Below are positions 47,448 through 52,192 of a DNA stretch of 64,000 nt, in pieces. The stretch's first letter is position 1; each line of letters opens with the position of its first letter. Source of the DNA: Salinigranum halophilum (GTDB lineage Archaea; Halobacteriota; Halobacteria; Halobacteriales; Haloferacaceae). The DNA lies in assembly GCF_007004735.1 (NCBI RefSeq), contig NZ_SSNL01000005.1, positions 372,001 through 436,000 on the forward strand, given 5' to 3'. Position numbers and translations under genes: made by a program. The notes beneath the pieces were generated by a model that saw nothing but the letters and a program-made list of their open reading frames with translations, had not been told where the DNA came from and did not search any database.

Positions 47448-47560
47448 ATACAGCCGACAATCCCGCCACTAACCACACCCGATGGCATAGCATGATATTC
47501 CACGTCTCGGTCGTTATTTTTAATATACTAATTCTCATAAGTACTTATGAACACAGTCTG

Positions 47561-48829
47561 ATGCTGGAGACAACCCGTACCTATCGAGCGAAAATCGTCA
47601 ACCACTCTCAGGTGAGTGACGACCTCGATGACTGCGGGCACTCAGCCTCAAAACTGTGGAACGTCGCCCGCTATCACATCCAACAAGAATGGGATGCTAC
47701 CGGCGAGATTCCGTCCGAAGCCGACCTCAAGCGCGAATTAAAAGACCACGAACGATACAGTGACCTGCATTCTCAGTCAAGTCAGCGAGTTCTTGAAGAG
47801 CTTGCTGAGTCGTTCACCGGCTGGTTCAAAAAGCGCAAGAACGGCGACACAGACGCGAATCCCCCCGGATACAGAAAGCGAGGCGACAACCATCCACGCT
47901 CCACCGTGACGTGGAAGCAGAACGGCATCAAGCACGATTCCAAGCACAACCAACTCCGTCTGAGCAAAGGCTTCAACCTGAAGAACCACCGCTCGGACTT
48001 CATCCTCGCAGAGTACGAGACGCGCCCGGACGTGACCGTGGAGAACATCCAGCAGGTTCGAGCCGTGTGGAACGGCGACCGTTGGGAACTCCACCTCGTC
48101 TGCAAGGTCGAGATTCCTGTCGAGGACGCACCCGGTGACAACACCGCTGGAATCGACCTTGGTATCAGCAACTACCTCGCCATCGCCTACGACGACGGTG
48201 ACGCTGAGTTGTATCCGGGGAACGTCTTGAAGCAGGACAAGCACTACTTCACCCGCGACGAGTACGACACAGAGGGCAAGAACGGCCCCTCGCGTCGTGC
48301 GCTTCGTGCTCGACAGAAACTCTCGCGTCGGAAAGACCACTTCCTACACGCTCTCGCCAAACACATCGTTGAGCAGTGCATCGACCACGAGGTCGGTCGC
48401 ATCGCCATCGGTGACTTGAGCCAGATTCGTGAGGACGAGAACGGTGAGTCTCGGAACTGGGGCAAGCGTGGCAACAAGAAACTCCACGGATGGGAGTTCG
48501 ACCGCTTCACCACGTTACTCGAATACAAGGCCGAAGAACACGGTATCCTCGTTGACCGTGTTTCAGAGCGAGATACGTCGAAGACGTGTTCGTGCTGTGG
48601 GCGAAAGCGTGACGCGAACCGTGTGGAGCGTGGCTTGTACGTTTGTGAGTCGTGCGGAACGACGATGAATGCGGACGTGAATGGTGCGGTGAACATTCGC
48701 AGAAAGATAACTCAGAATCCTCCGACGGAGGATATGGGTAACGGTCGTTTGGCACGGCCAGCAGTCCACCTGTTCAACCAAACCTCGGGGCGTTTCGCAC
48801 CGAGCGAACAGGCGAGTTGCGAACCCTGA
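47561..48829 (+). CDS. tnpB: TnpB-like RNA-guided endonuclease (OrfB, zinc-ribbon type)
   Basis: This 422-residue protein has an N-terminal RNA-binding part (ETTRTYRAKIVNHSQVSDDL), then the RuvC-like nuclease. RuvC-I is D199 in TAGIDLGISNYLAIA. At the RuvC-II position the sequence is VGRIAIGDLSQIR with Gly284 where most TnpB proteins have Glu. RuvC-III is D372 in NADVNGAVNI, following a four-Cys zinc ribbon (CSCCGRKRD...YVCESCG). The start at 47561 drops a hydrophobic leader that is only element DNA. The protein would cut DNA guided by an RNA from the right end, if active. Confidence 0.88.
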   Translation: MLETTRTYRAKIVNHSQVSDDLDDCGHSASKLWNVARYHIQQEWDATGEIPSEADLKRELKDHERYSDLHSQSSQRVLEELAESFTGWFKKRKNGDTDANPPGYRKRGDNHPRSTVTWKQNGIKHDSKHNQLRLSKGFNLKNHRSDFILAEYETRPDVTVENIQQVRAVWNGDRWELHLVCKVEIPVEDAPGDNTAGIDLGISNYLAIAYDDGDAELYPGNVLKQDKHYFTRDEYDTEGKNGPSRRALRARQKLSRRKDHFLHALAKHIVEQCIDHEVGRIAIGDLSQIREDENGESRNWGKRGNKKLHGWEFDRFTTLLEYKAEEHGILVDRVSERDTSKTCSCCGRKRDANRVERGLYVCESCGTTMNADVNGAVNIRRKITQNPPTEDMGNGRLARPAVHLFNQTSGRFAPSEQASCEP

Positions 48830-48878
48830 TATCCCAACGCTCGGGAATCCTCGCCCTTTAGGGCGGGGAGGATGTCAA
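48780..48878 (+). ncRNA. Probable omega RNA (reRNA) region at the right end of tnpB
   Basis: TnpB guide RNAs of this class derive from the 3' end of the gene and the right end of the element. Here that part includes the tnpB stop (48829) and the stable hairpin at 48849-48868; guide sequence would be read from the flanking DNA after about 48878. This is inferred from family knowledge; ends are not determined. Confidence 0.45.
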
Positions 48879-50475: not shown

Positions 50476-50484
50476 GATATAAAC
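50476..50484 (-). promoter_or_regulatory. Box A promoter of the MinD-like gene
   Basis: On the minus strand this reads GTTTATATC, 26-34 bases upstream of the ATG at 50450, consistent with a leaderless transcript. Confidence 0.6.
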
Positions 50485-50966
50485 CTTCACCGGAGACTAC
50501 GATAGATGAGAGACGGCTGAGAGAGTACGAGAGTCACTACTGACGACGACGGATTCGCTCCTGTGTATCTTCATATCTACTCTCGAGTTGACAGGGCGCT
50601 GGACTGCTCCCGTCTCGCACGGGTCGTATATGCGTCCGTCCGAGAGTTCGACGTTCGACCGCACACCAGACGGGAGAGGCACTCGTGCCGAGGAGGACGC
50701 ACTGAGCCTCGTAACACACGCCGATGACTCGATGATGACTGACGATAGACAGACGAAGGGCGTACGATACGTCGCAGGTCAGCTCGCACACATCGCACCA
50801 GTAGGTGCCATGGCTGAGGCAGAGAGGAACTGGGGGAGCAGTGGCTCATACGAGTCCGAGACGGCTGTTCGGATGTTCGTGTGACACTCGGTCGAATGGT
50901 TTTCGGGAGTTAAGTCAGAGTGGTCAAAAGACCTCCGAGAAATCCACAAATATTGATATATTTGAT

Positions 50967-50980
50967 AGTATATATAAGCC
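50967..50980. promoter_or_regulatory. Strong TATA-like element in the AT-rich island
   Basis: AGTATATATAAGCC is a near-ideal archaeal box A on the plus strand (a second, CATATAAGC, is at 51060-51068). No frame starts within 30 bases on either strand, so a promoter here would drive a long leader or a non-coding RNA. Confidence 0.4.
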
Positions 50981-51345
50981 GTAGTTTTTCGAGTTATCTC
51001 CCAGTGAAAATCCACTTAATCTTATCGCAAAAATAGGACCATCGTCTGCGGGTAGACCTGACATATAAGCTCTAACCCCCCCGTTTCGTTCTACTGCATA
51101 GTACCGCGCCTTACACCGGTTTGTGCGCTCAAATATTCACTTTCACTCCGGTTTAGCATCCGTTAAGAGTGTCCCGATCATACTGGGGAATGAATCATCA
51201 CCCTAAATGAAGGTACGACTGCTAAACAATAGTCTAACTTCAGATAGGTTTGGGACATCATCCCCGAGTCCCAAGAGTTAACAGCAGCAGTCACCCCACA
51301 CACATCCATGTAAACGAGACACTCGCCACTGGTTGGCAGTATCGA

Positions 51346-51448
51346 CCTGCGTGCATCAACGGACCTCCTACAATCTGCCGATGCACGCAGGGGAAAGCAA
51401 GCCCCTCTGCCGACAGGGGTCATACCTGTCGAGGGACATGGTGGGCTT
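51346..51448 (+). ncRNA. Candidate structured RNA (two strong hairpins) upstream of the 51525 gene
   Basis: Hairpin 1 is a perfect 12-bp stem, CCTGCGTGCATC (51346-51357) with GATGCACGCAGG (51380-51391), with a 22-base loop containing GGACCTCCT. Hairpin 2 is compound: outer AAGCCC (51399-51404) with GGGCTT (51443-51448), inner CGACAGG (51411-51417) with CCTGTCG (51425-51431) and a 7-base loop. The next start codon is 77 bases downstream. Either a 5' leader or a stand-alone RNA is possible; strand is assumed from the downstream gene. Confidence 0.4.
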
Positions 51449-51524
51449 TAGATAGCGACCACTTGAGTCCACCGGAGACGACAACTGTTCCTCGGCTCGG
51501 GAGTCGGCACGACCAGTCGAAACT

Positions 51525-51905
51525 ATGGCAACAGCCGCCACTAAGACCGTCGCAGAACGCGCAATCGAATACCTCAAAGCCGAGGGGGGTTGGAAACGCC
51601 CTCGAACGGTAGCCGAGGCCATCGACTCAGGGACAGACTACACGAGGGACGTTCTCAACGACCTCTATGGTGAGGATAAAGTCCAGAAGCGAGAGAAGGG
51701 AATCATCCTTGGAACTCGCATCAGCGGGGATTGGAAGGTCATCGACTCCAGAGAGCAAGCGATATCGGTAATCCGTATACACGGTGATGCGGAACCGGAT
51801 GGGATGGCTTCGATGACCCTCAACGAAGTTCGCAGTTACATCCGTACCAACATCGCTGAGGCTACTGGGGTACTCAACAAGAAGGTCTGGTTCAAGCGGG
51901 ACTGA
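51525..51905 (+). CDS. Orphan winged-helix-like small protein in the AT-rich island
   Basis: This 126-residue protein has an N-terminal winged-helix-like section, ATKTVAERAIEYLKAEGGWK, then RPRTVAEAIDSGTDYTRDVL and YGEDKVQKREKGIILG. A second part follows (MTLNEVRSYIRTNIAEATGVLNKKVWFK). Its codon use is less GC-biased than its neighbours and it has fewer acidic residues, pointing to transfer, perhaps from a virus or plasmid. It is preceded by the two-hairpin RNA candidate and followed by a T-run at 51936-51941. No family name can be given; a DNA-binding role is inferred from the fold only. Confidence 0.65.
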   Translation: MATAATKTVAERAIEYLKAEGGWKRPRTVAEAIDSGTDYTRDVLNDLYGEDKVQKREKGIILGTRISGDWKVIDSREQAISVIRIHGDAEPDGMASMTLNEVRSYIRTNIAEATGVLNKKVWFKRD

Positions 51906-51935
51906 AACTCACACGAAAGGAATCGATCTAAATCA

Positions 51936-51941
51936 TTTTTT
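51936..51941 (+). terminator. Probable T-run terminator after the 51525 gene
   Basis: Six T residues (ATCATTTTTTCAG) begin 31 bases after the stop codon. Archaeal RNA polymerase terminates at such U-runs without needing a hairpin. Confidence 0.5.
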
Positions 51942-52192
51942 CAGATTCGCTATCATGTGTTAGCTCTCTGTTGACCAATTTCTCGAGTTATGCCAGAGTA
52001 GGCAGGAGTCGTCTTCAAGAGAATTTCGTCCGCATTGGAAAGGGGGGCTCCCATTTTCGGAGGGATATTAACGGAGATATTCGTGAAATTCAACAGAAAC
52101 AGATGGGTCAGAGATTTTTTCGAGAGGGTCGATTTCTGACCATGGATACAAGTACGAACTCGTCCCTGCCAGACCAAATCACACAGTCAAAG
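51942..52192. other. Low-GC spacer before aRF-1
   Basis: About 250 bases with runs such as GAGATATTCGTGAAATTC and mixed composition. Frames exist on both strands (51971-52201 plus, 51953-52177 minus) but neither shows a domain, an acidic bias or a sound start. I see no gene here. Confidence 0.45.

What the first reader, a model, noticed from the sequence alone, without database searches (positions are those of the whole stretch)
51346..51524. Candidate structured RNA with a 12-bp perfect hairpin and a compound second hairpin
Two strong stems occur within about 100 bases in an AT-rich, gene-free zone, just before an orphan winged-helix gene. The first loop contains GGACCTCCT, similar to the anti-Shine-Dalgarno end of 16S rRNA, so it could sequester or mimic ribosome-binding sequence. 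It matches none of the RNAs I know (RNase P, SRP, tRNA, box C/D).
Basis: partly seen in the sequence, partly recalled or inferred. Interest (0 to 1): 0.65.

Follow-up and report, generated by a model that had tools for sequence, protein, structure and literature searches.

The report
Structured leader RNA of winged-helix gene
In salt-loving archaea a small accessory gene for a DNA/RNA-binding-type protein is preceded by about 180 bases that fold into the same elaborate RNA shape in very different species, so this looks like a real, previously uncatalogued RNA switch rather than two chance hairpins.

Summary
The hairpins are real and not chance: a perfect 12-bp hairpin (51346-51391) and a second complex domain reaching almost to the ATG of a 126-aa winged-helix (wHTH) gene (51525-51905). 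The window copy folds far better than shuffles (z -3.3 to -3.9). The decisive evidence is comparative. The wHTH family is patchy (15 of 391 halobacterial species, plus plasmids including pNRC100), and 15 of 15 leaders examined are over-structured (mean z -2.7, against -0.4 just upstream), at near-constant distance from the ATG. Two sister pairs show 12 double-compensatory changes against 3 broken pairs. The hairpin-1 loop motif CUNCNACA recurs at -162 to -155 in three lineages. A loop-to-pre-ATG helix (51408-51414 with 51503-51509) is moderately supported. No Rfam family matches. In the window the unit lies in about 1.7 kb absent from a congener's minD-like/prf1 intergenic region, behind a copy of the prkA promoter region. 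In 6 loci the divergent neighbour is a CARF-type regulator (DUF6293). The anti-Shine-Dalgarno idea is not supported. Best reading: a structured 5' leader that gates expression of the wHTH gene, possibly bound by its product. Transcription is untested.

The parts
50484..52179 (.). Accessory insertion between the minD-like gene and prf1 that holds the whole unit
   Evidence: In congener G027 the sequence matching window 50483 and 52180 is separated by only 56 bp; the piece finds no other copy in 148 family genomes except prkA-promoter fragments
51074..51296 (+). Copy of the prkA upstream/promoter region, in two blocks 51074-51176 and 51240-51296; holds motif ACTTTCACTCCGGT (51139-51152) and TATA-like GTTAAC (51277-51282)
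   Evidence: 79-81% identity to G000 C2:749207-749426 and matches in congeners; exactly two perfect motif copies in the whole genome. TSS near 51305 is inferred from TATA spacing.
51346..51391 (+). Hairpin H1: 12-bp perfect stem, 22-nt loop
   Evidence: two compensatory changes and one C-A break against L010
51365..51372 (+). H1-loop motif CUCCUACA (CUNCNACA)
   Evidence: Same motif at -162 (L010), -155 (L011) and -160 (L023), where the window copy is at -160; L013 has it at -187; background 0.00022 per nt
51402..51419 (+). Short hairpin P2 (CCCCU/AGGGG) whose loop carries the pairing strand 51408-51414
   Evidence: Conserved in L010, L011, L014, L131
51412..51430 (+). Alternative hairpin GACAGG/CCUGUC, exclusive with P2
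   Evidence: Both alternatives stable in W, L010, L011, L014 and L131
51428..51496 (+). Long imperfect hairpin H3
   Evidence: comparable 60-75 nt hairpins in most other leaders; two compensatory changes at its base against L010
51503..51509 (+). Pairing strand GUCGGCA, 16-22 nt before the ATG, complementary to UGCCGAC 51408-51414
   Evidence: covarying complement in other leaders; permutation P about 2e-4 on hand-chosen segments, but not seen with whole segments
51525..51905 (+). Winged-helix gene, 126 aa: N-terminal wHTH plus a conserved C-terminal domain
   Evidence: family profile hits in 15 of 391 genomes; no Pfam or NCBIfam family

Best explanation
It is a structured, non-coding 5' leader RNA of about 180-220 nt (H1, then a domain of P2/alternative hairpin and H3 closed by a loop-to-pre-ATG helix) transcribed from a promoter about 225-260 nt before the start codon together with a small winged-helix protein gene on an accessory haloarchaeal locus. 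It most likely works in cis. Pairing of the P2-loop strand with the segment 16-22 nt upstream of the ATG, and the choice between the two exclusive hairpins, open or close translation of the wHTH gene. The recognised site is probably the H1 loop, bound by the wHTH protein itself or another factor. Shown by computation: the structure, its recurrence, the covariation and the link to the gene. Inferred: transcription start, translation gating and autoregulation.
For: Leader folds better than shuffles in 15 of 15 members, mean z -2.69, against -0.43 for DNA just upstream and -1.16 for coding DNA (paired Wilcoxon P 6e-5 and 8e-4). Sister pairs W/L010 and L014/L131: 12 double-compensatory, 2 one-sided, 3 broken pairs. 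H1-loop motif at a fixed distance from the ATG in three lineages. Loop-to-3' complementarity exceeds swapped partners (P about 2e-4). AT-only TATA-like stretches at -264 to -235 in 8 of the 14 usable members scanned. Every member is directly upstream of the same gene family, on the coding strand. No conserved reading frame in the leader.
Against: No transcript data. With whole flanking segments instead of hand-chosen loops the loop-to-3' test is negative (permutation P 0.32). L010 alone has a weak z (-1.05). The nested partition function gives that helix only about 0.09 in W (pseudoknots are not modelled). L009, L020 and L066 show no convincing loop-to-3' helix, L035 and L039 no clear H1, and L040 has no evident RNA. 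The antisense strand is almost as structured (z -3.3), so strand rests on gene orientation and promoters.
Confidence: 0.5

Rival explanations
1. The RNA is a stable trans-acting or RNP-forming RNA whose partner is the wHTH protein, for example an RNA-protein addiction (toxin-antitoxin-like) or anti-element module; co-location with the gene is for co-inheritance.
For: Structure conserved while stem sequence drifts; conserved H1-loop motif fits a protein site; patchy distribution, plasmid and accessory locations; sensor-type divergent neighbour.
Against: RNA runs to within about 16 nt of the ATG with pairing strands there, which suits cis control; no toxin-like domain in the protein; no repeats as in type III toxin-antitoxin RNAs.
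Confidence: 0.25
2. The palindromes act as DNA: operators for the wHTH protein or the divergent regulator (autorepression).
For: Winged-helix proteins commonly bind inverted repeats; H1 has two 12-bp arms; divergent gene pairs often share operators.
Against: H1 sequence differs almost completely between distant members although the protein fold is kept; H3 and the loop-to-3' helix have no DNA-operator logic; the structured region lies downstream of the likely promoter.
Confidence: 0.12
3. Chance: GC-rich spacer DNA in a halophile with accidental hairpins.
For: Spacer DNA in GC-rich genomes folds easily; 6 of 110 control upstream regions have z of -2 or lower (the sample was drawn from all called ORFs, so it may include family leaders).
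Against: 15 of 15 leaders, compensating changes, fixed-position loop motif.
Confidence: 0.04
4. Plasmid-type replication or copy-number control leader (pseudoknot plus antisense RNA) with the wHTH as a replication initiator.
For: Layout resembles the repZ/repA leaders of IncI-alpha and IncL/M plasmids, where a pseudoknot near the start site switches translation (titles of Asano and Mizobuchi 1998 and Athanasopoulos 1999, cited in PMC10724649); several copies on plasmids.
Against: Several copies, including the window's, lie on large contigs beside housekeeping genes; protein has no Rep match.
Confidence: 0.07

Closest known systems
Pseudoknot-controlled rep leaders of IncI-alpha/IncB/IncL-M plasmids (ColIb-P9 repZ)
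   Same: Structured leader, loop sequence pairing with a segment just before the start codon, large first hairpin with exposed loop
   Different: Archaeal; gene encodes a 126-aa wHTH, not a replication initiator; no antisense RNA or leader peptide found
Attenuator/riboswitch-type cis leaders
   Same: Two mutually exclusive hairpins sharing one strand; position in the 5' UTR
   Different: Almost no conserved ligand-pocket sequence; no Rfam match
Type III toxin-antitoxin RNAs (ToxI)
   Same: Structured RNA next to a small protein gene on mobile DNA, possible pseudoknot
   Different: Not a tandem repeat, much larger, protein is not an endoribonuclease fold
CreT/CreA of haloarchaea
   Same: Haloarchaeal accessory RNA module, near a family that can repress cas genes (HFX_2341, PMC11434293)
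   Different: CreT modules have no protein and work through CRISPR-like CreA guides (PMC8501985); none seen here
HFX_2341 / DUF6293 regulators
   Same: Divergent neighbour in 6 loci
   Different: A separate protein family; absent beside the window copy

Membership tests
Any Rfam 15 family | Covariance-model score above gathering threshold | tested here: not met
   Searches (window; 14 homologous loci): no match in the leader
Anti-Shine-Dalgarno mimic / ribosome sponge | CCUCC-type loop conserved in homologues | tested here: not met
   CCTCC in the H1 loop only in the window copy
Conserved structured RNA | Compensatory base changes in homologues | tested here: met
   12 double-compensatory, 3 broken in two sister pairs; hand-built helices
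Structured 5' leader (cis-regulatory RNA) | Constant position and strand upstream of one gene family | tested here: met
Structured 5' leader (cis-regulatory RNA) | Co-transcribed and affects expression of the gene | not testable with these tools
   No expression data or experiment available
Pseudoknot-controlled leader (repZ type) | Loop pairs with segment at the ribosome site | tested here: inconclusive
   positive on chosen segments, negative on whole segments
Pseudoknot-controlled leader (repZ type) | Gene is a replication initiator | tested here: not met
   No Rep match in Pfam, NCBIfam, PHROGs
Type III toxin-antitoxin | Tandemly repeated RNA and RNase-fold protein | tested here: not met
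   No tandem repeats; protein is winged helix
CreTA | Degenerate CRISPR repeats flanking a guide | not tested
   Not searched specifically; no such repeat noticed
Winged-helix proteins | wHTH profile or fold similarity | tested here: met
   Generic HTH_24/MarR-type matches of relatives and winged-helix folds in a low-confidence model

The most novel reading that the evidence does not exclude
The RNA and the wHTH protein form a ribonucleoprotein module, spread by horizontal transfer in haloarchaea and switched by a divergent CARF-type sensor, that acts in conflict between mobile elements and host (an archaeal RNA-protein addiction or defence system of a new type).
Probability: 0.13. Interest if true: 0.85.

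Novelty: new variant of a known kind. Interest (0 to 1): 0.58.

Why it matters
Few structured regulatory RNAs are described for archaea (own knowledge). A leader with switch-like alternative pairings, tied to one gene family across the Halobacteria and present on pNRC100 of the model organism Halobacterium salinarum NRC-1, gives a system that can be tested directly with existing transcriptomes and genetics, and a link to CARF-type regulators whose role in haloarchaea is unclear.

Tried and rejected
Rfam searches of window and 14 homologous loci: nothing; a snoZ103 hit at 51152-51207 minus (E 0.92) is below threshold. Sequence search with the RNA itself found only prkA-promoter pieces. Scans of viral contigs and phages: no relative; genome contigs gave only one. 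Whole-segment loop-to-3' duplex test: not significant. MAFFT alignments of the leaders do not follow structure, so no covariance model was built. H1-loop motif has no consistent complement in its own mRNA. Structure of the protein: AlphaFold with 2 sequences, pLDDT 64.5, only generic winged-helix hits; weak Z-alpha similarity taken as general wHTH resemblance. HDV-like ribozyme considered and dropped (no P3 equivalent; recalled topology, not tested).

Full report
Observation. The 211-nt region folds at -86.4 kcal/mol, z -3.3 against dinucleotide shuffles, none of 200 as good. No shuffle of the leaders gave a 12-bp perfect stem. No Rfam family is matched.

Homologues. The RNA sequence alone finds nothing beyond pieces of the prkA promoter. 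The protein downstream led to the answer: one 48% identical homologue in another genus (G047) has upstream of it an obviously related leader. Its stem reads CCUGCGCGAACC/GGUUCACGCAGG where the window has CCUGCGUGCAUC/GAUGCACGCAGG, with the same loop CUCCUACA, the same GCCGACAGGGG and the same GUCGGCAC before the start codon. Wider profile searches define a family of wHTH proteins of about 120-135 aa with a conserved C-terminal part. It occurs in 15 of 391 halobacterial species sampled, in 13 genera. Named carriers are Halogeometricum pallidum, Halalkalicoccus jeotgali and Haloplanus rubicundus plasmids, a Natrinema zhouii plasmid and pNRC100/pNRC200 of Halobacterium salinarum NRC-1.

Structure across the family. 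Local folding of each leader shows the same broad order in most members: hairpin H1 (starting about -160 to -185), a short hairpin P2, a long imperfect hairpin H3 of 60-75 nt, then the ATG. Leader z-scores are negative in 15 of 15 members, mean -2.69; the DNA just upstream averages -0.43 and the coding DNA -1.16. An earlier run of this test used a wrong start for L131; one search corrects it. In the two closest pairs of relatives, explicit helices show 12 double-compensatory pairs, 2 one-sided changes, 3 breaks and 35 unchanged pairs. The motif CUNCNACA lies in the H1 loop at -162, -160, -160 and -155 in four members of three lineages, at -187 in L013, and L019 has CUCCAAC at -159; the background is 0.00022 per nt.

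Long-range helix and switch. The P2 loop of the window (UGCCGAC, 51408-51414) is complementary to GUCGGCA (51503-51509), 16-22 nt before the ATG. Corresponding complements of different sequence exist in L011, L014, L018, L023 and L131. A permutation test on hand-chosen segments gives P about 2e-4; the same idea on whole segments is not significant, so I rate this helix as moderately supported. In W, L010, L011, L014 and L131 the G-rich strand can pair either with the C-rich strand before it (P2) or with one after it, and both hairpins are stable. That is the layout of a two-state switch; it is shown only as a possibility of the sequence.

Promoter and locus. AT-only TATA-like stretches sit at -264 to -235 in eight of the fourteen usable members scanned (L012 and the duplicate L112 set aside, and L131 was scanned from a wrong start there). 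In the window the DNA upstream is a diverged copy of the prkA upstream region, and the motif ACTTTCACTCCGGT occurs perfectly just twice in this genome, before prkA and before this RNA. In congener G027 the two flanking genes are separated by 56 bp between the matched ends where the window has about 1.7 kb, so the whole unit is an accessory insertion. The leader shows no conserved reading frame.

Neighbours. Across the examined loci the divergent gene on the other side of the RNA is a DUF6293/HFX_2341 protein (CARF-like N-terminal domain plus winged helix) in six, and a 204-239 aa protein without Pfam match in three. DUF6293 genes number only one to five per genome in the eight genomes counted, so the pairing is very unlikely to be chance. 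HFX_2341 of Haloferax mediterranei is a global regulator that represses cas genes when over-expressed (PMC11434293). The window copy has no such neighbour.

Mechanism. The fixed order promoter-RNA-gene, the pairing strand just before the ATG and the alternative hairpins favour a cis-acting leader controlling the wHTH gene (probability about 0.5). An RNP or addiction-type module is the main rival (0.25).

Limits. No expression data; helices and segments were chosen by hand with the answer in view; the protein model is of low confidence; the sample of species is partial.

Noticed in passing
window 51074-51296: Duplicate of the prkA (serine kinase) upstream region including the motif ACTTTCACTCCGGT; related motifs also before L131, L014 and L040. 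May define a small regulon.
   Followed up: partly
window 51308-51313: ATG-TAA start-stop pair at the place where a leaderless transcript would begin.
   Followed up: no
L103 10240-10539, L107 10165-10572, L111 10306-10698 (minus): Convergent small gene with motif YSGPxGPENRPA downstream of the wHTH gene in three loci; no Pfam family for two of them.
   Followed up: partly
L099 10125-10739, L104 10661-11380, L106 8949-9581: Divergent 204-239 aa family (RGxLTPxDKxFL) without Pfam, NCBIfam or PADLOC match, also on pNRC100.
   Followed up: partly
L101 6672-7277 and L102 8954-9559: Tyrosine recombinase gene next to the wHTH gene.
   Followed up: no
window 47492-48869: IS200/IS605-type TnpB gene with the Rfam sot0042 RNA over its 3' end.
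   Followed up: no
window 50985-50997 and 51979-51991: Imperfect 13-bp direct repeat TTTTTCGAGTTAT/TTTCTCGAGTTAT flanking the unit within the insertion; could be a recombination site or chance.
   Followed up: no
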